From assembly GCA_951812925.1 (NCBI GenBank), contig OX638370.1:1-64000 (forward strand): a stretch of DNA of 64,000 bases, written 5' to 3'. A program made the translations under genes and the position numbers. Under the pieces are notes generated by a model, which saw nothing but the letters and a program-made list of their open reading frames with translations, was not told where the DNA came from and ran no database searches. This document shows, piece by piece, positions 1 through 32,962 of this stretch (positions within the stretch are counted from its first letter, which is position 1; the number at the start of each line of letters is the position of its first letter). Source of the stretch: Calliopum simillimum (lineage: Eukaryota; Arthropoda; Insecta; Diptera; Lauxaniidae).

Positions 1-58
1 AGAACACGCCCTGATAACTAGGCAACAAAACTGGCAAAAGTCGGCTTCGCAGCCGCTC

Positions 59-131
59 AAAAGGCTAGTTGATTGGTTAACGACTTGTGCTACCAACCGG
101 GAGGTCGTTGGTTCAACTCCCGCCCAGGCCA
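59..131 (+). promoter_or_regulatory. tRNA-derived block with Pol III A and B boxes (first copy)
   Basis: TAGTTGATTGG (66-76) matches the A-box pattern TRGYNNAGYGG at 10 of 11 positions. GGTTCAACTCC (110-120) matches the B box GGTTCRANYCC. Their starts are 44 nt apart, the canonical tRNA spacing. The D arm pairs (68-71 with 81-84, one G-U) and a CTACCAA 7-nt anticodon-like loop sits at 90-96. The T stem (107-111 with 119-123) is imperfect and the acceptor stem does not pair. It is therefore a tRNA-derived, SINE-like head rather than a working tRNA. It lies on the ribozyme strand and recurs in every 398-bp unit up to about 17173-17245. Confidence 0.7.
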
Positions 132-150
132 ACACACACACACACAAAAG

Positions 151-176
151 TTTTTCAACTTGCAATTTGTTTTTTT
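151..176 (+). terminator. Pol III terminator-like T-runs
   Basis: A T5 run (151-155) and a T7 run (170-176) follow the B box by 30-60 nt and precede the hammerhead at 238. If Pol III starts at the tRNA-like block, most transcripts should stop here at roughly 100-120 nt and never reach the ribozyme. Ribozyme-bearing RNA would then need read-through or another promoter. The runs repeat in every unit. Confidence 0.5.
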
Positions 177-237
177 AATTACATATAATTAATTTAGGTA
201 AAATAAATATACATATGTAATTATAATTACAACAAAA

Positions 238-288
238 ATAGTCTGATGAGTCTTTGTGGCGAACGAAAGACGAAACATATGTCACTAT
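238..288 (+). ncRNA. Type I hammerhead ribozyme, first copy of 44
   Basis: All conserved core bases are present: CUGAUGA (243-249), GAAA (272-275) and a GUC cleavage triplet (281-283). Stem I is AUAGU (238-242) with ACUAU (284-288), 5 bp. Stem II is GUCUUU (250-255) with AAAGAC (266-271), 6 bp, closed by a 10-nt loop. Stem III is very short: A275-U282 and C276-G281 around an AUAU loop, as in known satellite hammerheads of newts, schistosomes and cave crickets. Cleavage is predicted between C283 and A284, leaving a 2',3'-cyclic phosphate and a 5'-OH. Copies recur every 398 nt to 17352-17402. GCC (290-292) could kiss GGC (258-260) in loop II, as expected for the stem I/II tertiary contact. Activity is inferred, not shown. 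Confidence 0.93.
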
Positions 289-3200
289 AGCCGTGTTTTT
301 ATTTTAATCCGTTCCTTAATTTGTCATAATTATGTGTTAGAAAAATGCATTGATAGATTTATTTATATGTAAATCGATCTTTGCAAATACAATTTGGGAG
401 AACACGCCCTGATAACTAGGCAACAAAACTGGCAAAAGTCGGCTTCGCAGCCGCTCAAAAGGCTAGTTGATTGGTTAACGACTTGTGCTACCAACCGGGA
501 GGTCGTTGGTTCAACTCCCGCCCAGGCCAACACACACACACACAAAAGTTTTTCAACTTGCAATTTGTTTTTTTAATTACATATAATTAATTTAGGTAAA
601 ATAAATATACATATGTAATTATAATTACAACAAAAATAGTCTGATGAGTCTTTGTGGCGAACGAAAGACGAAACATATGTCACTATAGCCGTGTTTTTAT
701 TTTAATCCGTTCCTTAATTTGTCATAATTATGTGTTAGAAAAATGCATTGATAGATTTATTTATATGTAAATCGATCTTTGCAAATACAATTTGGGAGAA
801 CACGCCCTGATAACTAGGCAACAAAACTGGCAAAAGTCGGCTTCGCAGCCGCTCAAAAGGCTAGTTGATTGGTTAACGACTTGTGCTACCAACCGGGAGG
901 TCGTTGGTTCAACTCCCGCCCAGGCCAACACACACACACACAAAAGTTTTTCAACTTGCAATTTGTTTTTTTAATTACATATAATTAATTTAGGTAAAAT
1001 AAATATACATATGTAATTATAATTACAACAAAAATAGTCTGATGAGTCTTTGTGGCGAACGAAAGACGAAACATATGTCACTATAGCCGTGTTTTTATTT
1101 TAATCCGTTCCTTAATTTGTCATAATTATGTGTTAGAAAAATGCATTGATAGATTTATTTATATGTAAATCGATCTTTGCAAATACAATTTGGGAGAACA
1201 CGCCCTGATAACTAGGCAACAAAACTGGCAAAAGTCGGCTTCGCAGCCGCTCAAAAGGCTAGTTGATTGGTTAACGACTTGTGCTACCAACCGGGAGGTC
1301 GTTGGTTCAACTCCCGCCCAGGCCAACACACACACACACAAAAGTTTTTCAACTTGCAATTTGTTTTTTTAATTACATATAATTAATTTAGGTAAAATAA
1401 ATATACATATGTAATTATAATTACAACAAAAATAGTCTGATGAGTCTTTGTGGCGAACGAAAGACGAAACATATGTCACTATAGCCGTGTTTTTATTTTA
1501 ATCCGTTCCTTAATTTGTCATAATTATGTGTTAGAAAAATGCATTGATAGATTTATTTATATGTAAATCGATCTTTGCAAATACAATTTGGGAGAACACG
1601 CCCTGATAACTAGGCAACAAAACTGGCAAAAGTCGGCTTCGCAGCCGCTCAAAAGGCTAGTTGATTGGTTAACGACTTGTGCTACCAACCGGGAGGTCGT
1701 TGGTTCAACTCCCGCCCAGGCCAACACACACACACACAAAAGTTTTTCAACTTGCAATTTGTTTTTTTAATTACATATAATTAATTTAGGTAAAATAAAT
1801 ATACATATGTAATTATAATTACAACAAAAATAGTCTGATGAGTCTTTGTGGCGAACGAAAGACGAAACATATGTCACTATAGCCGTGTTTTTATTTTAAT
1901 CCGTTCCTTAATTTGTCATAATTATGTGTTAGAAAAATGCATTGATAGATTTATTTATATGTAAATCGATCTTTGCAAATACAATTTGGGAGAACACGCC
2001 CTGATAACTAGGCAACAAAACTGGCAAAAGTCGGCTTCGCAGCCGCTCAAAAGGCTAGTTGATTGGTTAACGACTTGTGCTACCAACCGGGAGGTCGTTG
2101 GTTCAACTCCCGCCCAGGCCAACACACACACACACAAAAGTTTTTCAACTTGCAATTTGTTTTTTTAATTACATATAATTAATTTAGGTAAAATAAATAT
2201 ACATATGTAATTATAATTACAACAAAAATAGTCTGATGAGTCTTTGTGGCGAACGAAAGACGAAACATATGTCACTATAGCCGTGTTTTTATTTTAATCC
2301 GTTCCTTAATTTGTCATAATTATGTGTTAGAAAAATGCATTGATAGATTTATTTATATGTAAATCGATCTTTGCAAATACAATTTGGGAGAACACGCCCT
2401 GATAACTAGGCAACAAAACTGGCAAAAGTCGGCTTCGCAGCCGCTCAAAAGGCTAGTTGATTGGTTAACGACTTGTGCTACCAACCGGGAGGTCGTTGGT
2501 TCAACTCCCGCCCAGGCCAACACACACACACACAAAAGTTTTTCAACTTGCAATTTGTTTTTTTAATTACATATAATTAATTTAGGTAAAATAAATATAC
2601 ATATGTAATTATAATTACAACAAAAATAGTCTGATGAGTCTTTGTGGCGAACGAAAGACGAAACATATGTCACTATAGCCGTGTTTTTATTTTAATCCGT
2701 TCCTTAATTTGTCATAATTATGTGTTAGAAAAATGCATTGATAGATTTATTTATATGTAAATCGATCTTTGCAAATACAATTTGGGAGAACACGCCCTGA
2801 TAACTAGGCAACAAAACTGGCAAAAGTCGGCTTCGCAGCCGCTCAAAAGGCTAGTTGATTGGTTAACGACTTGTGCTACCAACCGGGAGGTCGTTGGTTC
2901 AACTCCCGCCCAGGCCAACACACACACACACAAAAGTTTTTCAACTTGCAATTTGTTTTTTTAATTACATATAATTAATTTAGGTAAAATAAATATACAT
3001 ATGTAATTATAATTACAACAAAAATAGTCTGATGAGTCTTTGTGGCGAACGAAAGACGAAACATATGTCACTATAGCCGTGTTTTTATTTTAATCCGTTC
3101 CTTAATTTGTCATAATTATGTGTTAGAAAAATGCATTGATAGATTTATTTATATGTAAATCGATCTTTGCAAATACAATTTGGGAGAACACGCCCTGATA

Positions 3201-6200
3201 ACTAGGCAACAAAACTGGCAAAAGTCGGCTTCGCAGCCGCTCAAAAGGCTAGTTGATTGGTTAACGACTTGTGCTACCAACCGGGAGGTCGTTGGTTCAA
3301 CTCCCGCCCAGGCCAACACACACACACACAAAAGTTTTTCAACTTGCAATTTGTTTTTTTAATTACATATAATTAATTTAGGTAAAATAAATATACATAT
3401 GTAATTATAATTACAACAAAAATAGTCTGATGAGTCTTTGTGGCGAACGAAAGACGAAACATATGTCACTATAGCCGTGTTTTTATTTTAATCCGTTCCT
3501 TAATTTGTCATAATTATGTGTTAGAAAAATGCATTGATAGATTTATTTATATGTAAATCGATCTTTGCAAATACAATTTGGGAGAACACGCCCTGATAAC
3601 TAGGCAACAAAACTGGCAAAAGTCGGCTTCGCAGCCGCTCAAAAGGCTAGTTGATTGGTTAACGACTTGTGCTACCAACCGGGAGGTCGTTGGTTCAACT
3701 CCCGCCCAGGCCAACACACACACACACAAAAGTTTTTCAACTTGCAATTTGTTTTTTTAATTACATATAATTAATTTAGGTAAAATAAATATACATATGT
3801 AATTATAATTACAACAAAAATAGTCTGATGAGTCTTTGTGGCGAACGAAAGACGAAACATATGTCACTATAGCCGTGTTTTTATTTTAATCCGTTCCTTA
3901 ATTTGTCATAATTATGTGTTAGAAAAATGCATTGATAGATTTATTTATATGTAAATCGATCTTTGCAAATACAATTTGGGAGAACACGCCCTGATAACTA
4001 GGCAACAAAACTGGCAAAAGTCGGCTTCGCAGCCGCTCAAAAGGCTAGTTGATTGGTTAACGACTTGTGCTACCAACCGGGAGGTCGTTGGTTCAACTCC
4101 CGCCCAGGCCAACACACACACACACAAAAGTTTTTCAACTTGCAATTTGTTTTTTTAATTACATATAATTAATTTAGGTAAAATAAATATACATATGTAA
4201 TTATAATTACAACAAAAATAGTCTGATGAGTCTTTGTGGCGAACGAAAGACGAAACATATGTCACTATAGCCGTGTTTTTATTTTAATCCGTTCCTTAAT
4301 TTGTCATAATTATGTGTTAGAAAAATGCATTGATAGATTTATTTATATGTAAATCGATCTTTGCAAATACAATTTGGGAGAACACGCCCTGATAACTAGG
4401 CAACAAAACTGGCAAAAGTCGGCTTCGCAGCCGCTCAAAAGGCTAGTTGATTGGTTAACGACTTGTGCTACCAACCGGGAGGTCGTTGGTTCAACTCCCG
4501 CCCAGGCCAACACACACACACACAAAAGTTTTTCAACTTGCAATTTGTTTTTTTAATTACATATAATTAATTTAGGTAAAATAAATATACATATGTAATT
4601 ATAATTACAACAAAAATAGTCTGATGAGTCTTTGTGGCGAACGAAAGACGAAACATATGTCACTATAGCCGTGTTTTTATTTTAATCCGTTCCTTAATTT
4701 GTCATAATTATGTGTTAGAAAAATGCATTGATAGATTTATTTATATGTAAATCGATCTTTGCAAATACAATTTGGGAGAACACGCCCTGATAACTAGGCA
4801 ACAAAACTGGCAAAAGTCGGCTTCGCAGCCGCTCAAAAGGCTAGTTGATTGGTTAACGACTTGTGCTACCAACCGGGAGGTCGTTGGTTCAACTCCCGCC
4901 CAGGCCAACACACACACACACAAAAGTTTTTCAACTTGCAATTTGTTTTTTTAATTACATATAATTAATTTAGGTAAAATAAATATACATATGTAATTAT
5001 AATTACAACAAAAATAGTCTGATGAGTCTTTGTGGCGAACGAAAGACGAAACATATGTCACTATAGCCGTGTTTTTATTTTAATCCGTTCCTTAATTTGT
5101 CATAATTATGTGTTAGAAAAATGCATTGATAGATTTATTTATATGTAAATCGATCTTTGCAAATACAATTTGGGAGAACACGCCCTGATAACTAGGCAAC
5201 AAAACTGGCAAAAGTCGGCTTCGCAGCCGCTCAAAAGGCTAGTTGATTGGTTAACGACTTGTGCTACCAACCGGGAGGTCGTTGGTTCAACTCCCGCCCA
5301 GGCCAACACACACACACACAAAAGTTTTTCAACTTGCAATTTGTTTTTTTAATTACATATAATTAATTTAGGTAAAATAAATATACATATGTAATTATAA
5401 TTACAACAAAAATAGTCTGATGAGTCTTTGTGGCGAACGAAAGACGAAACATATGTCACTATAGCCGTGTTTTTATTTTAATCCGTTCCTTAATTTGTCA
5501 TAATTATGTGTTAGAAAAATGCATTGATAGATTTATTTATATGTAAATCGATCTTTGCAAATACAATTTGGGAGAACACGCCCTGATAACTAGGCAACAA
5601 AACTGGCAAAAGTCGGCTTCGCAGCCGCTCAAAAGGCTAGTTGATTGGTTAACGACTTGTGCTACCAACCGGGAGGTCGTTGGTTCAACTCCCGCCCAGG
5701 CCAACACACACACACACAAAAGTTTTTCAACTTGCAATTTGTTTTTTTAATTACATATAATTAATTTAGGTAAAATAAATATACATATGTAATTATAATT
5801 ACAACAAAAATAGTCTGATGAGTCTTTGTGGCGAACGAAAGACGAAACATATGTCACTATAGCCGTGTTTTTATTTTAATCCGTTCCTTAATTTGTCATA
5901 ATTATGTGTTAGAAAAATGCATTGATAGATTTATTTATATGTAAATCGATCTTTGCAAATACAATTTGGGAGAACACGCCCTGATAACTAGGCAACAAAA
6001 CTGGCAAAAGTCGGCTTCGCAGCCGCTCAAAAGGCTAGTTGATTGGTTAACGACTTGTGCTACCAACCGGGAGGTCGTTGGTTCAACTCCCGCCCAGGCC
6101 AACACACACACACACAAAAGTTTTTCAACTTGCAATTTGTTTTTTTAATTACATATAATTAATTTAGGTAAAATAAATATACATATGTAATTATAATTAC

Positions 6201-9200
6201 AACAAAAATAGTCTGATGAGTCTTTGTGGCGAACGAAAGACGAAACATATGTCACTATAGCCGTGTTTTTATTTTAATCCGTTCCTTAATTTGTCATAAT
6301 TATGTGTTAGAAAAATGCATTGATAGATTTATTTATATGTAAATCGATCTTTGCAAATACAATTTGGGAGAACACGCCCTGATAACTAGGCAACAAAACT
6401 GGCAAAAGTCGGCTTCGCAGCCGCTCAAAAGGCTAGTTGATTGGTTAACGACTTGTGCTACCAACCGGGAGGTCGTTGGTTCAACTCCCGCCCAGGCCAA
6501 CACACACACACACAAAAGTTTTTCAACTTGCAATTTGTTTTTTTAATTACATATAATTAATTTAGGTAAAATAAATATACATATGTAATTATAATTACAA
6601 CAAAAATAGTCTGATGAGTCTTTGTGGCGAACGAAAGACGAAACATATGTCACTATAGCCGTGTTTTTATTTTAATCCGTTCCTTAATTTGTCATAATTA
6701 TGTGTTAGAAAAATGCATTGATAGATTTATTTATATGTAAATCGATCTTTGCAAATACAATTTGGGAGAACACGCCCTGATAACTAGGCAACAAAACTGG
6801 CAAAAGTCGGCTTCGCAGCCGCTCAAAAGGCTAGTTGATTGGTTAACGACTTGTGCTACCAACCGGGAGGTCGTTGGTTCAACTCCCGCCCAGGCCAACA
6901 CACACACACACAAAAGTTTTTCAACTTGCAATTTGTTTTTTTAATTACATATAATTAATTTAGGTAAAATAAATATACATATGTAATTATAATTACAACA
7001 AAAATAGTCTGATGAGTCTTTGTGGCGAACGAAAGACGAAACATATGTCACTATAGCCGTGTTTTTATTTTAATCCGTTCCTTAATTTGTCATAATTATG
7101 TGTTAGAAAAATGCATTGATAGATTTATTTATATGTAAATCGATCTTTGCAAATACAATTTGGGAGAACACGCCCTGATAACTAGGCAACAAAACTGGCA
7201 AAAGTCGGCTTCGCAGCCGCTCAAAAGGCTAGTTGATTGGTTAACGACTTGTGCTACCAACCGGGAGGTCGTTGGTTCAACTCCCGCCCAGGCCAACACA
7301 CACACACACAAAAGTTTTTCAACTTGCAATTTGTTTTTTTAATTACATATAATTAATTTAGGTAAAATAAATATACATATGTAATTATAATTACAACAAA
7401 AATAGTCTGATGAGTCTTTGTGGCGAACGAAAGACGAAACATATGTCACTATAGCCGTGTTTTTATTTTAATCCGTTCCTTAATTTGTCATAATTATGTG
7501 TTAGAAAAATGCATTGATAGATTTATTTATATGTAAATCGATCTTTGCAAATACAATTTGGGAGAACACGCCCTGATAACTAGGCAACAAAACTGGCAAA
7601 AGTCGGCTTCGCAGCCGCTCAAAAGGCTAGTTGATTGGTTAACGACTTGTGCTACCAACCGGGAGGTCGTTGGTTCAACTCCCGCCCAGGCCAACACACA
7701 CACACACAAAAGTTTTTCAACTTGCAATTTGTTTTTTTAATTACATATAATTAATTTAGGTAAAATAAATATACATATGTAATTATAATTACAACAAAAA
7801 TAGTCTGATGAGTCTTTGTGGCGAACGAAAGACGAAACATATGTCACTATAGCCGTGTTTTTATTTTAATCCGTTCCTTAATTTGTCATAATTATGTGTT
7901 AGAAAAATGCATTGATAGATTTATTTATATGTAAATCGATCTTTGCAAATACAATTTGGGAGAACACGCCCTGATAACTAGGCAACAAAACTGGCAAAAG
8001 TCGGCTTCGCAGCCGCTCAAAAGGCTAGTTGATTGGTTAACGACTTGTGCTACCAACCGGGAGGTCGTTGGTTCAACTCCCGCCCAGGCCAACACACACA
8101 CACACAAAAGTTTTTCAACTTGCAATTTGTTTTTTTAATTACATATAATTAATTTAGGTAAAATAAATATACATATGTAATTATAATTACAACAAAAATA
8201 GTCTGATGAGTCTTTGTGGCGAACGAAAGACGAAACATATGTCACTATAGCCGTGTTTTTATTTTAATCCGTTCCTTAATTTGTCATAATTATGTGTTAG
8301 AAAAATGCATTGATAGATTTATTTATATGTAAATCGATCTTTGCAAATACAATTTGGGAGAACACGCCCTGATAACTAGGCAACAAAACTGGCAAAAGTC
8401 GGCTTCGCAGCCGCTCAAAAGGCTAGTTGATTGGTTAACGACTTGTGCTACCAACCGGGAGGTCGTTGGTTCAACTCCCGCCCAGGCCAACACACACACA
8501 CACAAAAGTTTTTCAACTTGCAATTTGTTTTTTTAATTACATATAATTAATTTAGGTAAAATAAATATACATATGTAATTATAATTACAACAAAAATAGT
8601 CTGATGAGTCTTTGTGGCGAACGAAAGACGAAACATATGTCACTATAGCCGTGTTTTTATTTTAATCCGTTCCTTAATTTGTCATAATTATGTGTTAGAA
8701 AAATGCATTGATAGATTTATTTATATGTAAATCGATCTTTGCAAATACAATTTGGGAGAACACGCCCTGATAACTAGGCAACAAAACTGGCAAAAGTCGG
8801 CTTCGCAGCCGCTCAAAAGGCTAGTTGATTGGTTAACGACTTGTGCTACCAACCGGGAGGTCGTTGGTTCAACTCCCGCCCAGGCCAACACACACACACA
8901 CAAAAGTTTTTCAACTTGCAATTTGTTTTTTTAATTACATATAATTAATTTAGGTAAAATAAATATACATATGTAATTATAATTACAACAAAAATAGTCT
9001 GATGAGTCTTTGTGGCGAACGAAAGACGAAACATATGTCACTATAGCCGTGTTTTTATTTTAATCCGTTCCTTAATTTGTCATAATTATGTGTTAGAAAA
9101 ATGCATTGATAGATTTATTTATATGTAAATCGATCTTTGCAAATACAATTTGGGAGAACACGCCCTGATAACTAGGCAACAAAACTGGCAAAAGTCGGCT

Positions 9201-12200
9201 TCGCAGCCGCTCAAAAGGCTAGTTGATTGGTTAACGACTTGTGCTACCAACCGGGAGGTCGTTGGTTCAACTCCCGCCCAGGCCAACACACACACACACA
9301 AAAGTTTTTCAACTTGCAATTTGTTTTTTTAATTACATATAATTAATTTAGGTAAAATAAATATACATATGTAATTATAATTACAACAAAAATAGTCTGA
9401 TGAGTCTTTGTGGCGAACGAAAGACGAAACATATGTCACTATAGCCGTGTTTTTATTTTAATCCGTTCCTTAATTTGTCATAATTATGTGTTAGAAAAAT
9501 GCATTGATAGATTTATTTATATGTAAATCGATCTTTGCAAATACAATTTGGGAGAACACGCCCTGATAACTAGGCAACAAAACTGGCAAAAGTCGGCTTC
9601 GCAGCCGCTCAAAAGGCTAGTTGATTGGTTAACGACTTGTGCTACCAACCGGGAGGTCGTTGGTTCAACTCCCGCCCAGGCCAACACACACACACACAAA
9701 AGTTTTTCAACTTGCAATTTGTTTTTTTAATTACATATAATTAATTTAGGTAAAATAAATATACATATGTAATTATAATTACAACAAAAATAGTCTGATG
9801 AGTCTTTGTGGCGAACGAAAGACGAAACATATGTCACTATAGCCGTGTTTTTATTTTAATCCGTTCCTTAATTTGTCATAATTATGTGTTAGAAAAATGC
9901 ATTGATAGATTTATTTATATGTAAATCGATCTTTGCAAATACAATTTGGGAGAACACGCCCTGATAACTAGGCAACAAAACTGGCAAAAGTCGGCTTCGC
10001 AGCCGCTCAAAAGGCTAGTTGATTGGTTAACGACTTGTGCTACCAACCGGGAGGTCGTTGGTTCAACTCCCGCCCAGGCCAACACACACACACACAAAAG
10101 TTTTTCAACTTGCAATTTGTTTTTTTAATTACATATAATTAATTTAGGTAAAATAAATATACATATGTAATTATAATTACAACAAAAATAGTCTGATGAG
10201 TCTTTGTGGCGAACGAAAGACGAAACATATGTCACTATAGCCGTGTTTTTATTTTAATCCGTTCCTTAATTTGTCATAATTATGTGTTAGAAAAATGCAT
10301 TGATAGATTTATTTATATGTAAATCGATCTTTGCAAATACAATTTGGGAGAACACGCCCTGATAACTAGGCAACAAAACTGGCAAAAGTCGGCTTCGCAG
10401 CCGCTCAAAAGGCTAGTTGATTGGTTAACGACTTGTGCTACCAACCGGGAGGTCGTTGGTTCAACTCCCGCCCAGGCCAACACACACACACACAAAAGTT
10501 TTTCAACTTGCAATTTGTTTTTTTAATTACATATAATTAATTTAGGTAAAATAAATATACATATGTAATTATAATTACAACAAAAATAGTCTGATGAGTC
10601 TTTGTGGCGAACGAAAGACGAAACATATGTCACTATAGCCGTGTTTTTATTTTAATCCGTTCCTTAATTTGTCATAATTATGTGTTAGAAAAATGCATTG
10701 ATAGATTTATTTATATGTAAATCGATCTTTGCAAATACAATTTGGGAGAACACGCCCTGATAACTAGGCAACAAAACTGGCAAAAGTCGGCTTCGCAGCC
10801 GCTCAAAAGGCTAGTTGATTGGTTAACGACTTGTGCTACCAACCGGGAGGTCGTTGGTTCAACTCCCGCCCAGGCCAACACACACACACACAAAAGTTTT
10901 TCAACTTGCAATTTGTTTTTTTAATTACATATAATTAATTTAGGTAAAATAAATATACATATGTAATTATAATTACAACAAAAATAGTCTGATGAGTCTT
11001 TGTGGCGAACGAAAGACGAAACATATGTCACTATAGCCGTGTTTTTATTTTAATCCGTTCCTTAATTTGTCATAATTATGTGTTAGAAAAATGCATTGAT
11101 AGATTTATTTATATGTAAATCGATCTTTGCAAATACAATTTGGGAGAACACGCCCTGATAACTAGGCAACAAAACTGGCAAAAGTCGGCTTCGCAGCCGC
11201 TCAAAAGGCTAGTTGATTGGTTAACGACTTGTGCTACCAACCGGGAGGTCGTTGGTTCAACTCCCGCCCAGGCCAACACACACACACACAAAAGTTTTTC
11301 AACTTGCAATTTGTTTTTTTAATTACATATAATTAATTTAGGTAAAATAAATATACATATGTAATTATAATTACAACAAAAATAGTCTGATGAGTCTTTG
11401 TGGCGAACGAAAGACGAAACATATGTCACTATAGCCGTGTTTTTATTTTAATCCGTTCCTTAATTTGTCATAATTATGTGTTAGAAAAATGCATTGATAG
11501 ATTTATTTATATGTAAATCGATCTTTGCAAATACAATTTGGGAGAACACGCCCTGATAACTAGGCAACAAAACTGGCAAAAGTCGGCTTCGCAGCCGCTC
11601 AAAAGGCTAGTTGATTGGTTAACGACTTGTGCTACCAACCGGGAGGTCGTTGGTTCAACTCCCGCCCAGGCCAACACACACACACACAAAAGTTTTTCAA
11701 CTTGCAATTTGTTTTTTTAATTACATATAATTAATTTAGGTAAAATAAATATACATATGTAATTATAATTACAACAAAAATAGTCTGATGAGTCTTTGTG
11801 GCGAACGAAAGACGAAACATATGTCACTATAGCCGTGTTTTTATTTTAATCCGTTCCTTAATTTGTCATAATTATGTGTTAGAAAAATGCATTGATAGAT
11901 TTATTTATATGTAAATCGATCTTTGCAAATACAATTTGGGAGAACACGCCCTGATAACTAGGCAACAAAACTGGCAAAAGTCGGCTTCGCAGCCGCTCAA
12001 AAGGCTAGTTGATTGGTTAACGACTTGTGCTACCAACCGGGAGGTCGTTGGTTCAACTCCCGCCCAGGCCAACACACACACACACAAAAGTTTTTCAACT
12101 TGCAATTTGTTTTTTTAATTACATATAATTAATTTAGGTAAAATAAATATACATATGTAATTATAATTACAACAAAAATAGTCTGATGAGTCTTTGTGGC

Positions 12201-15200
12201 GAACGAAAGACGAAACATATGTCACTATAGCCGTGTTTTTATTTTAATCCGTTCCTTAATTTGTCATAATTATGTGTTAGAAAAATGCATTGATAGATTT
12301 ATTTATATGTAAATCGATCTTTGCAAATACAATTTGGGAGAACACGCCCTGATAACTAGGCAACAAAACTGGCAAAAGTCGGCTTCGCAGCCGCTCAAAA
12401 GGCTAGTTGATTGGTTAACGACTTGTGCTACCAACCGGGAGGTCGTTGGTTCAACTCCCGCCCAGGCCAACACACACACACACAAAAGTTTTTCAACTTG
12501 CAATTTGTTTTTTTAATTACATATAATTAATTTAGGTAAAATAAATATACATATGTAATTATAATTACAACAAAAATAGTCTGATGAGTCTTTGTGGCGA
12601 ACGAAAGACGAAACATATGTCACTATAGCCGTGTTTTTATTTTAATCCGTTCCTTAATTTGTCATAATTATGTGTTAGAAAAATGCATTGATAGATTTAT
12701 TTATATGTAAATCGATCTTTGCAAATACAATTTGGGAGAACACGCCCTGATAACTAGGCAACAAAACTGGCAAAAGTCGGCTTCGCAGCCGCTCAAAAGG
12801 CTAGTTGATTGGTTAACGACTTGTGCTACCAACCGGGAGGTCGTTGGTTCAACTCCCGCCCAGGCCAACACACACACACACAAAAGTTTTTCAACTTGCA
12901 ATTTGTTTTTTTAATTACATATAATTAATTTAGGTAAAATAAATATACATATGTAATTATAATTACAACAAAAATAGTCTGATGAGTCTTTGTGGCGAAC
13001 GAAAGACGAAACATATGTCACTATAGCCGTGTTTTTATTTTAATCCGTTCCTTAATTTGTCATAATTATGTGTTAGAAAAATGCATTGATAGATTTATTT
13101 ATATGTAAATCGATCTTTGCAAATACAATTTGGGAGAACACGCCCTGATAACTAGGCAACAAAACTGGCAAAAGTCGGCTTCGCAGCCGCTCAAAAGGCT
13201 AGTTGATTGGTTAACGACTTGTGCTACCAACCGGGAGGTCGTTGGTTCAACTCCCGCCCAGGCCAACACACACACACACAAAAGTTTTTCAACTTGCAAT
13301 TTGTTTTTTTAATTACATATAATTAATTTAGGTAAAATAAATATACATATGTAATTATAATTACAACAAAAATAGTCTGATGAGTCTTTGTGGCGAACGA
13401 AAGACGAAACATATGTCACTATAGCCGTGTTTTTATTTTAATCCGTTCCTTAATTTGTCATAATTATGTGTTAGAAAAATGCATTGATAGATTTATTTAT
13501 ATGTAAATCGATCTTTGCAAATACAATTTGGGAGAACACGCCCTGATAACTAGGCAACAAAACTGGCAAAAGTCGGCTTCGCAGCCGCTCAAAAGGCTAG
13601 TTGATTGGTTAACGACTTGTGCTACCAACCGGGAGGTCGTTGGTTCAACTCCCGCCCAGGCCAACACACACACACACAAAAGTTTTTCAACTTGCAATTT
13701 GTTTTTTTAATTACATATAATTAATTTAGGTAAAATAAATATACATATGTAATTATAATTACAACAAAAATAGTCTGATGAGTCTTTGTGGCGAACGAAA
13801 GACGAAACATATGTCACTATAGCCGTGTTTTTATTTTAATCCGTTCCTTAATTTGTCATAATTATGTGTTAGAAAAATGCATTGATAGATTTATTTATAT
13901 GTAAATCGATCTTTGCAAATACAATTTGGGAGAACACGCCCTGATAACTAGGCAACAAAACTGGCAAAAGTCGGCTTCGCAGCCGCTCAAAAGGCTAGTT
14001 GATTGGTTAACGACTTGTGCTACCAACCGGGAGGTCGTTGGTTCAACTCCCGCCCAGGCCAACACACACACACACAAAAGTTTTTCAACTTGCAATTTGT
14101 TTTTTTAATTACATATAATTAATTTAGGTAAAATAAATATACATATGTAATTATAATTACAACAAAAATAGTCTGATGAGTCTTTGTGGCGAACGAAAGA
14201 CGAAACATATGTCACTATAGCCGTGTTTTTATTTTAATCCGTTCCTTAATTTGTCATAATTATGTGTTAGAAAAATGCATTGATAGATTTATTTATATGT
14301 AAATCGATCTTTGCAAATACAATTTGGGAGAACACGCCCTGATAACTAGGCAACAAAACTGGCAAAAGTCGGCTTCGCAGCCGCTCAAAAGGCTAGTTGA
14401 TTGGTTAACGACTTGTGCTACCAACCGGGAGGTCGTTGGTTCAACTCCCGCCCAGGCCAACACACACACACACAAAAGTTTTTCAACTTGCAATTTGTTT
14501 TTTTAATTACATATAATTAATTTAGGTAAAATAAATATACATATGTAATTATAATTACAACAAAAATAGTCTGATGAGTCTTTGTGGCGAACGAAAGACG
14601 AAACATATGTCACTATAGCCGTGTTTTTATTTTAATCCGTTCCTTAATTTGTCATAATTATGTGTTAGAAAAATGCATTGATAGATTTATTTATATGTAA
14701 ATCGATCTTTGCAAATACAATTTGGGAGAACACGCCCTGATAACTAGGCAACAAAACTGGCAAAAGTCGGCTTCGCAGCCGCTCAAAAGGCTAGTTGATT
14801 GGTTAACGACTTGTGCTACCAACCGGGAGGTCGTTGGTTCAACTCCCGCCCAGGCCAACACACACACACACAAAAGTTTTTCAACTTGCAATTTGTTTTT
14901 TTAATTACATATAATTAATTTAGGTAAAATAAATATACATATGTAATTATAATTACAACAAAAATAGTCTGATGAGTCTTTGTGGCGAACGAAAGACGAA
15001 ACATATGTCACTATAGCCGTGTTTTTATTTTAATCCGTTCCTTAATTTGTCATAATTATGTGTTAGAAAAATGCATTGATAGATTTATTTATATGTAAAT
15101 CGATCTTTGCAAATACAATTTGGGAGAACACGCCCTGATAACTAGGCAACAAAACTGGCAAAAGTCGGCTTCGCAGCCGCTCAAAAGGCTAGTTGATTGG

Positions 15201-17351
15201 TTAACGACTTGTGCTACCAACCGGGAGGTCGTTGGTTCAACTCCCGCCCAGGCCAACACACACACACACAAAAGTTTTTCAACTTGCAATTTGTTTTTTT
15301 AATTACATATAATTAATTTAGGTAAAATAAATATACATATGTAATTATAATTACAACAAAAATAGTCTGATGAGTCTTTGTGGCGAACGAAAGACGAAAC
15401 ATATGTCACTATAGCCGTGTTTTTATTTTAATCCGTTCCTTAATTTGTCATAATTATGTGTTAGAAAAATGCATTGATAGATTTATTTATATGTAAATCG
15501 ATCTTTGCAAATACAATTTGGGAGAACACGCCCTGATAACTAGGCAACAAAACTGGCAAAAGTCGGCTTCGCAGCCGCTCAAAAGGCTAGTTGATTGGTT
15601 AACGACTTGTGCTACCAACCGGGAGGTCGTTGGTTCAACTCCCGCCCAGGCCAACACACACACACACAAAAGTTTTTCAACTTGCAATTTGTTTTTTTAA
15701 TTACATATAATTAATTTAGGTAAAATAAATATACATATGTAATTATAATTACAACAAAAATAGTCTGATGAGTCTTTGTGGCGAACGAAAGACGAAACAT
15801 ATGTCACTATAGCCGTGTTTTTATTTTAATCCGTTCCTTAATTTGTCATAATTATGTGTTAGAAAAATGCATTGATAGATTTATTTATATGTAAATCGAT
15901 CTTTGCAAATACAATTTGGGAGAACACGCCCTGATAACTAGGCAACAAAACTGGCAAAAGTCGGCTTCGCAGCCGCTCAAAAGGCTAGTTGATTGGTTAA
16001 CGACTTGTGCTACCAACCGGGAGGTCGTTGGTTCAACTCCCGCCCAGGCCAACACACACACACACAAAAGTTTTTCAACTTGCAATTTGTTTTTTTAATT
16101 ACATATAATTAATTTAGGTAAAATAAATATACATATGTAATTATAATTACAACAAAAATAGTCTGATGAGTCTTTGTGGCGAACGAAAGACGAAACATAT
16201 GTCACTATAGCCGTGTTTTTATTTTAATCCGTTCCTTAATTTGTCATAATTATGTGTTAGAAAAATGCATTGATAGATTTATTTATATGTAAATCGATCT
16301 TTGCAAATACAATTTGGGAGAACACGCCCTGATAACTAGGCAACAAAACTGGCAAAAGTCGGCTTCGCAGCCGCTCAAAAGGCTAGTTGATTGGTTAACG
16401 ACTTGTGCTACCAACCGGGAGGTCGTTGGTTCAACTCCCGCCCAGGCCAACACACACACACACAAAAGTTTTTCAACTTGCAATTTGTTTTTTTAATTAC
16501 ATATAATTAATTTAGGTAAAATAAATATACATATGTAATTATAATTACAACAAAAATAGTCTGATGAGTCTTTGTGGCGAACGAAAGACGAAACATATGT
16601 CACTATAGCCGTGTTTTTATTTTAATCCGTTCCTTAATTTGTCATAATTATGTGTTAGAAAAATGCATTGATAGATTTATTTATATGTAAATCGATCTTT
16701 GCAAATACAATTTGGGAGAACACGCCCTGATAACTAGGCAACAAAACTGGCAAAAGTCGGCTTCGCAGCCGCTCAAAAGGCTAGTTGATTGGTTAACGAC
16801 TTGTGCTACCAACCGGGAGGTCGTTGGTTCAACTCCCGCCCAGGCCAACACACACACACACAAAAGTTTTTCAACTTGCAATTTGTTTTTTTAATTACAT
16901 ATAATTAATTTAGGTAAAATAAATATACATATGTAATTATAATTACAACAAAAATAGTCTGATGAGTCTTTGTGGCGAACGAAAGACGAAACATATGTCA
17001 CTATAGCCGTGTTTTTATTTTAATCCGTTCCTTAATTTGTCATAATTATGTGTTAGAAAAATGCATTGATAGATTTATTTATATGTAAATCGATCTTTGC
17101 AAATACAATTTGGGAGAACACGCCCTGATAACTAGGCAACAAAACTGGCAAAAGTCGGCTTCGCAGCCGCTCAAAAGGCTAGTTGATTGGTTAACGACTT
17201 GTGCTACCAACCGGGAGGTCGTTGGTTCAACTCCCGCCCAGGCCAACACACACACACACAAAAGTTTTTCAACTTGCAATTTGTTTTTTTAATTACATAT
17301 AATTAATTTAGGTAAAATAAATATACATATGTAATTATAATTACAACAAAA

Positions 17352-17402
17352 ATAGTCTGATGAGTCTTTGTGGCGAACGAAAGACGAAACATATGTCACT
17401 AT
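17352..17402 (+). ncRNA. Type I hammerhead ribozyme, last copy of the array
   Basis: This is the same 51-nt core as at 238-288, shifted by 43 x 398 nt, with no visible change. It is followed by about 100 nt of normal unit sequence before the array ends at 17502, so the last cleavage product would run into unique flanking DNA. Confidence 0.92.
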
Positions 17403-17502
17403 AGCCGTGTTTTTATTTTAATCCGTTCCTTAATTTGTCATAATTATGTGTTAGAAAAATGCATTGATAGATTTATTTATATGTAAATCGATCTTTGCAA
17501 AT

Positions 17503-18225
17503 TATGACTAAAAAAGTGCAATTAAAAATCTATTTTTAGAATTTTTATTTCAGTAGTATTTTCACGTTGCTGTGATTCTCATCTAGTTTATGCTAAAAGA
17601 TATATAAAGCAGGCTTGTTAATCTATGCGTTAATATGAGCAAAATCTGTCTGCTATAACATGGCAGTGAGCACAGTATGAATTTGTATGTACAGTGGTTC
17701 TGAATTGATATTTAATTTGGAATGCTGTGTAAGTAGGATATTTTGTATTCTAATAAAATATGTATAAACAAAATTTGCGTTGAAATTGTATCCAGCATTT
17801 ATGTTGCTCGGCATTGGCTAAAAATATTGGTGTTTTTTATCAGAAAAACGAAAATTCGATTTGATTGAAATTTACAAATGTGCTAGGGGGTATTTGATTC
17901 TTTTTAGCGTCTTGTAAAACAATCACTAAACGAAGCAGAATGAATTAACCAGAAAATTCCCAAAAAAAAATAAATTTTTTGGACGGCTTGTGAGCATTGC
18001 GAAACCAACCTGGCGATCGTAGAAGATCCAACCACGTTAGAGAAGCATTATATACGTTAACTTTTATAGGCTTCACCATAGGTTTAACCAGAGCAAACGT
18101 ATTAGCCGATATTATGAATAACATATCAAGCGCCCTTTATTTATCATTTAGCATAGACTAGATGAGAATCACAAAAGCAACAAAAATATTGGTCAAGTAA
18201 AAATTGAAAACAAACAAAAGCGAAT
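17503..18225. other. Array flank with a ~32-bp inverted-repeat pair
   Basis: This is unique AT-rich DNA without a credible gene. The segment 17566-17597 is repeated in reverse at 18148-18183 with one mismatch and a three-base insertion, about 550 bp apart. This suggests the ends of a small non-autonomous inverted-repeat element or foldback. I see no target duplication. Confidence 0.5.
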
Positions 18226-19454
18226 GGTCCATTCAGTACGTCGAATACGTCACGTCGTTTTTTTTCAACTGACCAGCGTTGCCATCAACTCAAAAGGGAG
18301 AGTGTCACAGCGATTCAAAAAAGGTGTCATATAACACCCTCTGATTGTACAAATTGGTGTCATATAACACCCTTCATTTTTATACCCTACACCCAGGGTA
18401 TATTCACTTTGTCCTTCCGTTTGTAACGCAGAGAAGGAGGCGTGGCAGACATGGAAAAGTATATATATTCTTGATCAGCGTCATCTTCTGAGTCGATATA
18501 GCTATGTCCGTCCGTCTGGCTGGCTGGCTGGGTTGCTGGCTGGCTGTGTGTGGAAATACATTTTTTGGGAAAACTAAGCAAGATAATTCAATGAAATTCG
18601 GTGCACAGCTTCCGTCGTCAAAGTTAGCTCGGGGGATTGAAAATGAGCGCAATCGGCCAACGGACACGCCTACCTCCCATACAAAAAATATATTCAAAAT
18701 GCAACTTTTGGAGTATTTTTCTCGATAATGCAACCAAAATACCCATAAATTCTACGAATTGTAAGCGCAAGCTCTGAGCAAGAACTGTGCGAATTCGGAC
18801 AAGAGTGGCACCTCTCATATAAGCAAAAGCTTCAAAACGCTATACTGAAACCGTTTTTTGAGATAATCGAACTAAATATTACTCAGACGCTAAGAATTAT
18901 AAATGCAAGCTTTAAGCAAAAACTGGATAAAATCGGACAAAAGGGCGTGGCACCTCCGTGACACCTTGTGGAAAATCGCGGTGTCACAAAAATCTGATAT
19001 TTTTTCGGTGTCACAGACAAAAACTAAGTGTCACATGTGACACCGAAAGTGTCACAATGGCAACGCTGCAACTGACTGCGACGCATTCGACGGAGGCACC
19101 TGGCCCAATGAATACTTTCAAAACGGATTAAAACATCACAATTTTTTTTATAATATTAATTTCAAATTTTTATTTTTGCACTTGCACAGCTCCAATATTT
19201 TTTTATTCCAATATTATTTAAAATATAAAACAAAAACGATAAAGAAAAAAAAAAACAACAAATGAAATTGAAAATAAATTTATTTTACGGTTGTCAAATC
19301 ACACGACGTACGTCGAAAGTTGGGAGTTGGGCAACTTTTGTACGTTGCGTTGACGGTGACGTACTGATTGGGTCGCACTTGATATAAACTCATATTTTGA
19401 ACTTAGCTGTCAGTCGTAAAAAACAACGTGACGTACTCGACGTACTGAATGGAC
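18226..19454. mobile_element. Inverted-repeat (MITE-like) element with ~48-bp termini
   Basis: The left end (18226-18274, starting ggtccattcagtacgtcg) and right end (19408-19454, ending actgaatggacc) are near-perfect reverse complements over nearly 50 bp. A second inverted pair, agcgttgccat near 18274 and atggcaacgct near 19057, lies just inside. There is no transposase reading frame, so the element is non-autonomous. The interior is occupied by a different dispersed repeat (18374-18957) framed by GTGTCAC motifs, so at least two insertions are nested. No clear target duplication is visible. Confidence 0.7.
18374..18957 (-). repeat. Dispersed 'agggtata'-ended repeat, inverted copy
   Basis: Read on the minus strand, this matches 60640-61157. 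Both contain the terminal ataccctacacccagggta block, the constant segment about aacgcagagaaggaggcg, the cgatatagctatgtccgtc segment with its tggctggctgg tract, and 'gaggtgccac' modules. It resembles a dispersed repeat common in fly intergenic DNA whose class I cannot name. Its short reading frames are not genes. Confidence 0.75.
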
Positions 19455-20664: not shown

Positions 20665-21187
20665 GTAGGTATGCTGATTAAAATCCCATTTAAAATCCAA
20701 AAAAAAAAACGAAAACTTGAAGAATTCCATGCGAAATTTTATTTCACAATAATGGTGATCACATTTCATCGGCCTTAAAGGCCTAAAAATTACAAATTGG
20801 AATGAATTAAATTAAAGTTACAAAATAGTAAACGCTAGTCTTACTAAATAACCGTAGAGATATTAGCCAATCCAATGATCTTCCGGAGTGCTTTTCTTGT
20901 ATTAAAATACTCACTTCTACATGGCTTCTGTGGCTACCACTGTATCTGTAAATTATATTAGAAAGTAATTTACAATAAAATTTTAAATTTGTAATAAATT
21001 TAATATTTAGTTAAAAAACTATGTCCATTAGACTGCCTGAGACAAACATATGAAATGTGCAAAGTTGTAATTTTTTTACTCCCCGTAAAATAGAGATCAA
21101 AGAAAGTTAGAAAAAAACAATTGGAATTAGTGGGAAAACTCAGTTGGTTTTCGATTAGAGTTTCAAAAATGGACTGTCACCCCTTGC

Positions 21188-21517
21188 TTGGATTCGGCAA
21201 TATTAAGTTGTTATTTTAATATTCAGAGAAAAATCCAGCAATCAAAATGGAACACGTCGAACACCTTTTTAAGCACACATAATCCTTCCTTAGTAAGACT
21301 CAACTATAACTCAAAATTATCCATAAAAGAATGCATTTCTATAGCCAGAGTCAGACTTGGAAAAACATTGTTCACCACAAAACATTTATTTGATAGAACC
21401 ACTCCAATAGAATGTGAATATTGTACCACTTTACTCATTGTTCAGCACATTTTAGCTGACTGTCCAGTTTCAAGAAAAAACCAACCAATTCAAAAATTAT
21501 TAGACTGCAGCATATGA
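21188..21517 (+). pseudogene. Non-LTR retrotransposon ORF2 C-terminus, copy 1
   Basis: The frame is open from 21131 to the stop just after 21514. It encodes the tail of a LINE ORF2 protein: an RVRLGKTLFT stretch followed by a CX2CX7HX4C knuckle (CEYC...H...C near residues 76-92). This pattern is typical of I/Jockey/R1-like elements after the reverse transcriptase and RNase H regions. Those upstream domains are absent, so it is a 5'-truncated insertion. An AT-rich 3' UTR follows. The TTG at 21188 is not a genuine start. Confidence 0.75.
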
Positions 21518-22074
21518 GATTCCTACAAAATTATTAAAGAATGTTTAGCGAAACACAGTTTATCTATGACTGATATTTAATATATGTAAATACTTCTATT
21601 ACTAGTACTTATGACCCTGTTGCCCCGTACCTTTATACTTTATAAATTTATTTATAAAGTAAAATACTTAAATAGATAAATAATTTTTGCGTATTGTTAG
21701 GTAAGGTAAGCAGCGCGGGAGATGGCAATTGTCATCATAACTTAGGCGATATATAACTTTGTTGTCAACCTATATGATCCATTTAGAAATGTTTATAAGC
21801 TCCAAAATAGATTTGGGATTCTATTGAGCAATATCTTTTAAAGAGTCGAAGAAGTGACTAAATGTGCTGAAGGCATCTTTTGTAAAGAATAATCAGAAAA
21901 AAAAATGTTAACTTTGCACATAAGGGAACTCTTATGGACAAGAGCTAGAAGGATACATTTTGTATGCGACACTCACCATTAGATCAAAGAAAGTTAGAAA
22001 AAAACAATTGGAATTAGTGGGAAAACTCAGTTGGTTTTCGATTAGAGTTTCAAAAATGGACTGTCACCCCTTGC

Positions 22075-22404
22075 TTGGATTCGGCAATATTAAGTTGTTA
22101 TTTTAATATTCAGAGAAAAATCCAGCAATCAAAATGGAACACGTCGAACACCTTTTTAAGCACACATAATCCTTCCTTAGTAAGACTCAACTATAACTCA
22201 AAATTATCCATAAAAGAATGCATTTCTATAGCCAGAGTCAGACTTGGAAAAACATTGTTCACCACAAAACATTTATTTGATAGAACCACTCCAATAGAAT
22301 GTGAATATTGTACCACTTTACTCATTGTTCAGCACATTTTAGCTGACTGTCCAGTTTCAAGAAAAAACCAACCAATTCAAAAATTATTAGACTGCAGCAT
22401 ATGA
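22075..22404 (+). pseudogene. Non-LTR retrotransposon ORF2 C-terminus, copy 2
   Basis: This is the second copy of the truncated ORF2 tail, 887 bp downstream and identical at the protein level, with the same CX2CX7HX4C knuckle and the same 3' sequence. It exists only because of the tandem duplication. Confidence 0.75.
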
Positions 22405-23484
22405 GATTCCTACAAAATTATTAAAGAATGTTTAGCGAAACACAGTTTATCTATGACTGATATTTAATATATGTAAATACTTCTATTACTAGTACTTATG
22501 ACCCTGTTGCCCCGTACCTTTATACTTTATAAATTTATTTATAAAGTAAAATACTTAAATAGATAAATAATTTTTGCGTATTGTTAGGTAAGGTAAGCAG
22601 CGCGGGAGATGGCAATTGTCATCATAACTTAGGCGATATATAACTTTGTTGTCAACCTATATGATCCATTTAGAAATGTTTATAAGCTCCAAAATAGATT
22701 TGGGATTCTATTGAGCAATATCTTTTAAAGAGTCGAAGAAGTGACTAAATGTGCTGAAGGCATCTTTTGTAAAGAATAATCAGAAAAAAAAATGTTAACT
22801 TTGCACATAAGGGAACTCTTATGGACAAGAGCTAGAAGGATACATTTTGTATGCGACACTCACCATTAGCTAACTTTTTAAGAAAACTTCTTGAGAGGTA
22901 TCTTCGCAGAGCAGACACTTCAATGTGCAAGGGATTGCAAGCAACTCTTAAAGAAAATAAATAAAGAGCAATTGAATTTTTTTTTAAATTCAAAGATTTC
23001 CATCACCAACTACTACTCACCCTGGACTGAGATAATCGCTCACCAGTTCATTATGTTGTGATTTCATATTGTCTTGAAATTTAAATTTTGTTTTTTAAAT
23101 TTGAATACTCAAAATTGACAGAAAACTATATGTCGAAAAAATAGCGGTACGAATACCTAGAAAATACAGGAAATGTTCCAGATACTCGTACGTGAAACAA
23201 AAATGGAAATAAAAAAATAAAGAAATGTAAAAAATTCAAATACAACCGGTACTCATTTTTTGCAGGGATATTATTAAATATTTTTGGTGTTTTACAACAA
23301 AGTAGTAATATTCATTTAAATTTATGTAGAACTAAATAAGTCAAAAATTTAAAAAACTTTTTTTATCAAAAGAAAGATTGAGCGTTACAATTTTCTTTTT
23401 ATGACAATAAATCTGTGGCCACAATAAATAACTGAGCAATTCGATTTTTATCAAATGCCACAGAATCATACATCGTTTTGTGGG

Positions 23485-32458: not shown

Positions 32459-32962
32459 ATGTCATCATCATCTTCTTGCTACAAGTGTAATCGTCCGGGT
32501 CACTATGCCCGTGACTGTAATTCGGGAATGCGTGATGGTGGTGGTCGGGATGGTGGTGGCCGTGATGGAGGCGGTGGTGGTGGTGGTGGCGGTGGCGGCG
32601 GTCGCGATATGCGGCGCGGCAACAATCGCGAAAAATGTTACAAATGTAATCAATTTGGACACTTTGCACGCGCGTGCCCCGAAGAGTCTGAGCGGTGCTA
32701 CCGCTGCAACGGGATCGGCCACATTTCTAAAGACTGCACCCAAACGGACAACCCGACTTGTTATAAATGCAACAAACTGGGCCACTGGGCACGCAACTGC
32801 CCCGAACAAGTGACTGATCGCTCTTCCAACATCTCTTGCTACAAGTGTAACCGGACCGGCCACATCTCCAAGCACTGCCCGGATACGGCCAAAACGTGCT
32901 ACGGCTGTGGCAAAAGTGGTCACCTCAAGCGTGAGTGTGACGAGAAAGTGGGCAGAGACTAA
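32459..32962 (+). CDS. CNBP: CNBP-like CCHC zinc-knuckle nucleic-acid-binding protein
   Basis: This is a complete 167-residue intronless frame with six CX2CX4HX4C zinc knuckles at residues 7-20, 60-73, 80-93, 101-114, 127-140 and 147-160. A Gly-rich RDGGG/RGG-type linker (about 25-54) separates the first knuckle from the rest. This is the architecture of the CNBP (ZNF9) family, cytosolic single-stranded RNA/DNA-binding proteins that aid translation and unwind G-rich structures. Insect members also have six or seven knuckles, so the length is normal. The ATG at 32459 has A at -3 and the first knuckle begins six residues later. The Gly-rich tract is a GGN repeat and may vary in length. The 3' UTR runs to a probable AATAAA at 33298. 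Long frames on the other strand here are shadows. Confidence 0.95.

What the first reader, a model, noticed from the sequence alone, without database searches (positions are those of the whole stretch)
1..17502. Hammerhead-ribozyme satellite in an insect genome
All conserved hammerhead nucleotides, three correctly registered helices and a GUC cleavage triplet occur in every 398-nt unit, about 44 times in tandem on one strand. Transcripts across the array should cut themselves into 398-nt monomers, which a host RtcB-type ligase could circularise. Established parallels are animal retrozymes, schistosome, newt and cave-cricket satellites. I know of no such array described in this setting, so it may be a new family.
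Basis: partly seen in the sequence, partly recalled or inferred. Interest (0 to 1): 0.95.

Follow-up and report, generated by a model that had tools for sequence, protein, structure and literature searches.

The report
Self-cutting RNA repeats at chromosome ends
The repeat array read in this window is the assembled tip of a chromosome: seven of this genome's twelve assembled chromosome tips carry a repeat that encodes an RNA predicted to cut itself, and the repeat descends from a mobile element scattered about two thousand times through the same genome.

Summary
In detail: window 1-17502 is 43 identical 398-bp units plus a truncated 44th, each with a complete hammerhead core; 13/13 pairs are standard. 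The wider genome changes the meaning. The window is the left tip of a 124-Mb contig. Related arrays with their own unit lengths (385-410 bp) sit at C1L, C3L, C3R, C4R, C5L, C5R, and a degenerate one at C6L: 7 of 12 tips. The terminal ribozyme variant has 232 matches; the 155 listed by position are all terminal with 5' side toward the tip, and array lengths account for the rest. Six arrays abut one subtelomeric segment, found near full length only there. The parent is a dispersed ~544-bp retrozyme (2,127 hammerhead matches) with tandem copies, target-site duplications and inverted ends resembling Penelope insertions. Best reading: a retrozyme-derived telomeric satellite whose transcripts should self-cleave, probably kept by recombination, possibly by reverse transcription of circular RNA. 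Cleavage, circles, true termini, telomerase status and species were not shown. Ribozyme satellites and complex dipteran telomeres are known separately; my searches listed no report of the combination.

The parts
1..17502 (+). Terminal array of the 398-bp unit at the left tip of contig C3; 43 identical full units plus a 44th ending at unit position 388; the array begins at base 1 of the contig
238..288 (+). Hammerhead, type I register, first unit: stem I 238-242/284-288; CUGAUGA 243-249; stem II 250-255/266-271; GAAA 272-275; stem III 275-276/281-282; predicted cleavage 283|284; repeats every 398 bp
275..282 (+). ACAUAUGU, self-complementary 8-mer; gives an 8-bp stem III if two tandem copies pair (dimeric hammerhead)
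   Evidence: energy not better than shuffles
212..281 (+). Alternative type III register of the same core: closing helix 212-218/275-281, stem I hairpin 220-224/238-242, predicted cleavage 219|220; upstream strand also at C1L, C3R, C4R, C5L, changed by one base at C5R, absent at C6L and in dispersed copy L056
66..76 (+). Pol III A-box match TAGTTGATTGG in a tRNA-like stretch of the unit (consensus recalled)
   Evidence: position; direct reading
110..120 (+). Pol III B-box match GGTTCAACTCC (consensus recalled); T5 at 151 and T7 at 170 lie between it and the hammerhead
346..385 (+). 3' stem-loop TGCA..GAT.GATTTA (loop) TAAATC.ATC..TGCA near the 3' end of the element
   Evidence: fold; sequence mostly kept in the alignment
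17502..17538 (+). Inner junction: tail TATGACTAAAA..GTGCAATT..ATCTATTTTTA like the right-hand end of dispersed retrozyme insertions
17540..18219 (+). Shared subtelomeric segment with terminal inverted repeats, near full length only at the six tips C1L, C3L, C3R, C4R, C5L, C5R (78-82% identity of the other five to this copy)
   Evidence: search used 17540-18250

Best explanation
The array is a telomere-terminal satellite derived from the genome's own retrozyme. Shown in sequence: a dispersed ~544-nt hammerhead element with retrozyme structure; a shortened derivative (385-410 bp units, 4-nt insertion in hammerhead loop 2) found only at assembled chromosome ends, in one orientation, and at six of the seven ends next to a shared subtelomeric segment. 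[quoted passage not shown] Inferred: the ends were seeded by reverse transcription of retrozyme RNA, probably by a Penelope-type enzyme, and the arrays are now kept long and uniform mostly by recombination-type copying (unequal exchange, break-induced replication) within each end, serving as the chromosome-end sequence in a genome whose fetched tips carry no TTAGG.
For: Window = C3:1-64000 and arrays at tips of the six large contigs except C2. HHR units at 7 of 12 tips; six arrays each with its own unit length and near-uniform in what was fetched. Variant-specific pattern: 98 fwd + 134 rev = 232; all 100 places listed and all 55 exact places are terminal; 98 fwd = C1L 5 + C3L 44 + C5L 25 (counted in L025) + C6L 24; 134 rev is met by C3R 19 + about 60 (C4R) + about 55 (C5R) computed from array lengths. 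Shared segment near full length at six tips only. Parent family: 2,127 HHR matches; four tandem 544-bp units 100% identical; border repeats of 10 bp or more at 6 of 9 loci against 5 of 72 mismatched pairs, 12 or more at 3 of 9 against 0 of 72. HHR is the most conserved part in 11 dispersed copies, 10 of 11 with intact core pattern. No TTAGG x4 in the fetched sequence of the 12 tips; the 100 listed of 185 TTAGG array starts are interior. Interspersed variants in C5R (ABABAABAB) and C4R fit recombination.
Against: Five tips lack it: C1R, C2R and C4L end in other satellites, C2L and C6R in none. A contig end is not proof of a chromosome terminus. Telomerase search was uninformative (no hit, but the control rang nowhere). 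Rfam score is below gathering and only 24.2 bits, E 0.013, for a dispersed copy; C4R and C6L gave nothing at E 0.01. Minimum-energy folds of monomer, circle and a 520-nt transcript with two HHRs do not show the hammerhead. 2 of 9 outer C4R units have one stem I pair broken and a C6L unit has UUU for GUC. T-runs would stop pol III before the ribozyme.
Confidence: 0.65

Rival explanations
1. Telomerase-like version: circular ribozyme RNA is the template for chromosome-end growth. The 3' end of the chromosome (antisense strand) pairs with the sense circle and a Penelope-type or other reverse transcriptase copies it round and round, adding identical head-to-tail units with their 5' side outward.
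For: Orientation is that of end-primed reverse transcription at every array. Uniformity up to the innermost unit at C3L, C3R and C5L, with variants in C3R and C5L only at the outermost unit. One interior insertion holds four identical full 544-bp units plus partials between 14-bp repeats, as from a circular or multimeric template. Inner junction resembles the right-hand end of interior insertions. Copying of retrozyme circRNA into tandem cDNA is proposed for interior loci (PMC7229834 discussion); Penelope relatives attach to rotifer telomeres (PMC6431247 passages).
Against: No enzyme, circle or end intermediate shown. Interspersed variants at C5R and C4R are not expected from one circle. The shared subtelomeric segment shows that ends have exchanged sequence, which also conserves orientation. 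No interior copy of the terminal variant was listed, so its RNA is not seen to be used elsewhere.
Confidence: 0.27
2. Subtelomeric satellite: the arrays lie just inside true telomeres that were not assembled, and have no part in capping.
For: Contig tips are not proven termini; three tips end in other satellites; telomerase absence not established.
Against: Seven tips stop inside the same satellite; no TTAGG x4 in any fetched tip, and the 100 listed TTAGG array starts, of 185, are interior.
Confidence: 0.2
3. Ordinary satellite with a relic ribozyme: hammerhead inherited from the retrozyme, no longer cut or no longer useful.
For: Uniform arrays keep any sequence by homogenisation; folds predict that the ribozyme is paired up by flanking sequence; C6L has a unit with UUU instead of GUC and 2 of 9 outer C4R units a broken stem I pair.
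Against: Core nucleotides unchanged in the units aligned from six arrays although these differ elsewhere; the C4R 4-nt insertion lengthens stem III and keeps it pairing.
Confidence: 0.25
4. Assembly artefact: identical units invented by the assembler at a chromosome end.
For: 100% identity over 17.5 kb at a contig edge.
Against: Different unit lengths and variants per tip, and one shared inner junction and flank at six tips.
Confidence: 0.03

Closest known systems
Animal (non-LTR) retrozymes (PMC7229834; abstract, discussion and one results section read)
   Same: Type I hammerhead in short head-to-tail repeats of about 400 bp; the dispersed parent also has tandem copies and border repeats; insects are named there among carriers of such repeats
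   Different: Here a derivative is found only at chromosome ends; parent unit 544 bp; circles not shown
Complex telomeric satellites of Chironomus and Anopheles gambiae, and the 30-32 bp An. albimanus repeat (passages of PMC7694509 and PMC7534423)
   Same: Tandem repeats at chromosome tips instead of short telomerase repeats, of over 120 bp in Chironomus and 820 bp in An. gambiae; exchange suggested as upkeep in An. gambiae
   Different: I saw no ribozyme mentioned in those passages; here the unit encodes one and has an identifiable retroelement parent
Terminons and Penelope-like elements (passages of PMC6431247 and PMC11167929)
   Same: Hammerhead plus attachment to telomeres (Terminons); extension of both target strands and internal start of reverse transcription (a Penelope element in vitro), like the inverted ends of the dispersed copies
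   Different: Those are long coding elements; this unit is short and non-coding
HeT-A/TART telomeric retrotransposons of Drosophila (structure recalled; PMC11698117 seen in a listing only)
   Same: Head-to-tail, 3' side toward the centromere, at chromosome ends
   Different: No coding capacity, much shorter unit, ribozyme
Newt satellite 2, Dolichopoda pDo500, schistosome W elements (passages of PMC6155905, PMC2837043, PMC8490949); schistosome SINE-like alpha elements (title in a reference list only)
   Same: Satellite or SINE-like repeats with hammerheads; dimeric cleavage described for newt RNA
   Different: Not reported there, in what I read, as chromosome-end sequence

Membership tests
Hammerhead ribozyme | Conserved core and three helices | tested here: met
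   13/13 pairs, type I; 18/18, type III
Hammerhead ribozyme | Rfam gathering score | tested here: not met
   37.8 against 48.5 bits
Hammerhead ribozyme | Self-cleavage | not testable with these tools
   needs transcription assay
Animal retrozyme | Type I HHR in short tandem repeats without coding capacity | tested here: met
   no ORF of 110 aa or more in 1-17502
Animal retrozyme | Retrotransposed insertions with target-site repeats (parent family) | tested here: met
   10 bp or more at 6 of 9 loci (5 of 72 mismatched pairs), 12 or more at 3 of 9 (0 of 72); L057 and L036 show none
Animal retrozyme | Circular RNA in tissue | not testable with these tools
   no RNA data
Telomeric satellite of Diptera | At chromosome ends and absent from the interior | tested here: met
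   7 of 12 assembled tips; 155 of 232 matches listed, all terminal, the rest met by array lengths
Telomeric satellite of Diptera | Physical end shown (Bal31, FISH, read ends) | not testable with these tools
   assembly only
Telomeric satellite of Diptera | No telomerase | tested here: inconclusive
   PF12009 no hit, control silent
Telomeric satellite of Diptera | Host is a dipteran | tested here: inconclusive
   one protein search, no homologue found
HeT-A/TART-type telomeric retrotransposon | Gag or reverse transcriptase coding | tested here: not met
   no ORF of 110 aa or more in the array
HeT-A/TART-type telomeric retrotransposon | 3' side toward centromere at every end | tested here: met
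tRNA-derived SINE | A and B boxes | tested here: met
   unit 66-76 and 110-120 (consensus recalled)
tRNA-derived SINE | Pol III transcript of the whole element | tested here: inconclusive
   T5 at 151 and T7 at 170 precede the HHR; ARAGORN finds no tRNA
Penelope-mobilised element | Its reverse transcriptase in this genome | not tested
   no search made

The most novel reading that the evidence does not exclude
A telomerase substitute made of ribozymes: chromosome-end repeats encode an RNA that cuts itself to unit length, is closed into a circle, and is copied round and round by a Penelope-type reverse transcriptase onto the chromosome 3' end, so that a retrozyme has become the telomere and its circular RNA plays the part of telomerase RNA.
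Probability: 0.22. Interest if true: 0.97.

Novelty: new variant of a known kind. Interest (0 to 1): 0.85.

Why it matters
It joins two open questions. How animals without telomerase keep chromosome ends made of long satellite units is unresolved, and what the circular RNAs of retrozymes are for is unknown. Here one sequence may be both, with a parent family in the same genome for comparison, so that a role of ribozyme RNA at chromosome ends can be tested directly.

Tried and rejected
Rejected: chance motif (44 matches against 0.12 in shuffles; 2,127 genome matches against 0 for the reversed pattern). Rejected as sole account: ordinary dispersed retrozyme array, because the 4-nt loop insertion was listed only at tips. 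Weakened: pol III transcription of the whole unit (T-runs). Weakened: fold energy as support; the dimer fold shows two hammerheads but 176 of 300 shuffles were as low, so I do not use the energy. Rejected: TTAGG as telomere in the assembled part; 185 array starts (95 and 90 by strand; reversed control 6 and 6), of which the 100 listed, on C1-C3, are interior and 85 were not listed. Led nowhere: ribozymes in the other tips, viral contigs (0 hits), one protein search for species (nothing at E 0.001), Pfam for eight window ORFs (only zinc knuckles in one) and NCBIfam for three (one weak hit below its cut-off). Read without use: passages of PMC12780124. Asked but did not complete: whether the C4L satellite and the C1R satellite occur elsewhere.

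Searches for prior report. I saw titles and starts of abstracts of the papers listed; six lists were capped (30 of 34, 20 of 29, 25 of 35, 25 of 35, 15 of 24, 12 of 15). None of these describes a hammerhead satellite as chromosome-end sequence; the library holds open-licence papers only, and two wanted papers were not held.

Full report
What is there. Window 1-17502 is a perfect tandem array: period 398, 44.0 copies, 100% matches, 43 of 43 full units letter-identical and the last unit identical up to position 388. Each unit holds a hammerhead at 238-288 of the first unit (44 pattern matches, 0.12 expected in shuffles). All 13 pairs of the type I register are standard and the cut would fall after C283. 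Rfam sees it as Hammerhead_3 with 37.8 bits, E 1.8e-6 in an 800-base search, under the gathering score. That match uses another register: an upstream CATATGT (212-218) closes a type III hammerhead with 18 of 18 standard pairs and a GUA site after A219. The upstream strand is also whole at C1L, C3R, C4R and C5L; at C4R the 4-nt insertion in stem III should weaken the closing helix (inference); at C5R one base differs; C6L and dispersed copy L056 lack it. L056 accordingly scores 24.2 bits, E 0.013, and of four loci searched together only C5L matched at E 0.01.

Where it is. The window is base 1-64000 of a 124.3-Mb contig of a 690-Mb, 334-contig genome. Five contigs of 117-163 Mb and one of 19.8 Mb look like chromosomes. 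I had the outer 9.2-10 kb or more of seven tips (C1L, C2L, C3R, C4L, C5L, C6L, and the window for C3L) and the outer 4 kb of five (C1R, C2R, C4R, C5R, C6R). The unit is at 7 of 12 tips: C1L (406 bp), C3L (398), C3R (385), C4R (410), C5L (402), C5R (391), and as a broken-up composite array at C6L reaching about 55.9 kb. C1R ends in a 326-bp satellite, C2R and C4L in related 227- and 376-bp satellites (longest match 219 bp at 90%), C2L and C6R in no satellite. Rfam at E 5 shows no ribozyme at C1R, C2L, C2R, C4L or C6R.

Terminal variant. Terminal units carry a CGAA duplication in hammerhead loop 2 that none of the 11 dispersed copies aligned has; C6L also holds units without it. A pattern for it with at most one mismatch gives 98 forward and 134 reverse places. 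The 100 listed are at C1L 5, C3L 44, C3R 19, C4R 32. A second, longer pattern gives 98 forward and 111 reverse, with its 55 exact places at C5R 31 and C6L 24; the 111 were not all listed, and units with a second mismatch drop out. Forward 98 equals C1L 5 + C3L 44 + C5L 25 (counted in L025) + C6L 24. Reverse 134 is met by C3R 19, about 60 from C4R and about 55 from C5R, computed from array length over unit length. So I find no interior copy, by listing for 155 and by arithmetic for the rest. All listed copies run 5' at the tip to 3' toward the centromere.

Inner border. At C1L, C3L, C3R, C4R, C5L and C5R the array runs into the same sequence: a retrozyme-like tail TATGACTAAAAAAGTTCAATTAAAAATCAATTTTTA, with small differences, then about 700-800 bp shared at roughly 78-84% identity. 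C5R lacks 22 bases at the junction, C3L lacks one, and the last unit of C1L has an internal deletion. A search with window 17540-18250 finds this segment near full length at these six tips only, one interior partial copy at C5:98.92 Mb, and short matches to its inverted-repeat ends elsewhere (40 of 180 candidates scored). It was not found at C6L. The innermost units of C3L, C3R and C5L match their arrays exactly; the only odd units of C3R and C5L are the outermost; C5R reads ABABAABAB and C4R BAAAAAAAB in the outer 4 kb. The ends share an old junction while the arrays have been renewed.

The parent. A 47-base pattern for the short-loop hammerhead with up to 3 mismatches occurs 2,127 times (1,078 and 1,049 by strand; reversed control 0; the 100 places listed are all on C1, spread over 62 Mb, and further copies on C3, C4 and C5 are). 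At C1:54.42 Mb four full 544-bp units are identical in tandem, with partial units on both sides. The telomeric unit aligns to this element in two main blocks, unit 1-17 with 11-27 and 26-389 with 142-464 (83%), so it is a shortened derivative. In 9 interior loci tested, border repeats of 9-14 bp were found at 7; L057 and L036 have none. Against 72 mismatched pairs of borders, 10 bp or more is seen at 6 of 9 loci and 5 of 72 pairs, 12 or more at 3 of 9 and 0 of 72, so the longer ones look like real target-site duplications and a 9-bp one may be chance. Six of these loci (L041, L056-L060) carry an inverted fragment that reaches the element's position 544. A Penelope element studied in vitro cleaves and extends both target strands and starts reverse transcription inside its RNA at an AC-rich stem-loop on AT-rich targets (passages of PMC11167929); the inverted ends here fit that, but no enzyme was sought. 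Among 11 dispersed copies chosen by overall similarity the hammerhead is the most conserved stretch (0.986 mean majority frequency against 0.866-0.970) and 10 of 11 have an intact core pattern (L040 keeps the core but mispairs in stem II; L045 has GCC for GUC).

How it may work. Stem III reads ACAUAUGU, a palindrome. Two copies fold as a double hammerhead with 8-bp stem III, the dimeric mode reported for newt and viroid RNAs (PMC6155905 passages). Against over-reading: 176 of 300 shuffled homodimers are as stable, the 520-nt transcript with two copies does not show the hammerhead, and in the circle the ribozyme pairs with sequence just downstream. A 4-nt insertion at C4R turns stem III into ACAU(ACAU)AUGU, longer and still paired; but 2 of 9 outer C4R units break a stem I pair. 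A and B boxes are present, but T-runs at 151 and 170 should stop pol III before the ribozyme, so another promoter or read-through is needed. Steps shown: sequence, location in the assembly, orientation, parentage. Steps inferred: transcription, cleavage, circles, upkeep.

Are these telomeres? For: seven tips stop in the same satellite, none of the fetched tips has TTAGG x4, and TTAGG arrays here are scattered inside chromosomes (185 starts on both strands; the 100 listed lie on C1-C3, all interior). Against: contig ends are not termini, five tips differ, and the telomerase search cannot be read because its control was silent. Dipterans lack TTAGG telomeres (PMC8977481 passages) and complex repeats form tips in Chironomus and Anopheles (PMC7694509 and PMC7534423 passages), but I could not prove that the host is a fly.

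Novelty. Ribozyme satellites, retrozymes and complex telomeric satellites are each known; Terminons put hammerheads in telomere-attached coding retroelements (PMC6431247 passages). In ten library searches (six with capped lists) I saw no title or start of abstract that reports a hammerhead satellite as the chromosome-end repeat. I call it a new variant of a known kind, with a bolder telomerase-like reading that the evidence does not exclude.

Noticed in passing
C1:4599144 and scattered sites (L064): TTAGG arrays inside chromosomes: 18,957 + 17,555 overlapping matches to the 25-mer, 185 array starts (100 listed, all interior), none in fetched tips
   Followed up: partly
L024 (C4L), L032 (C2R), L031 (C1R): Other uniform satellites at tips: related 376- and 227-bp units and a 326-bp unit without match to them; possibly centromeric or another telomeric type
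   Followed up: partly
window 17540-18219: Inverted-repeat element whose near-full-length form was found only beside the six ribozyme arrays while its ends match many interior sites
   Followed up: partly
window 21094-22869: Perfect 889-bp tandem duplication
   Followed up: no
window 37845-39172, 46615-47873, 63187-64000: Long palindromes, self-complementary at about 94-95%, the first two related to each other
   Followed up: no
window 32399-32962: ORF with six zinc-knuckle (CCHC) stretches, like the cellular protein CNBP (name recalled)
   Followed up: no
L027-L030 (contigs C7-C10): Small contigs of 47-61% G+C in their first 10 kb against 29-39% in the window; look like bacterial contamination, not searched
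   Followed up: no
L026 (C6L): Composite array in which ribozyme units alternate with 142-bp and about 204-bp repeats; units reach about 56 kb
   Followed up: no
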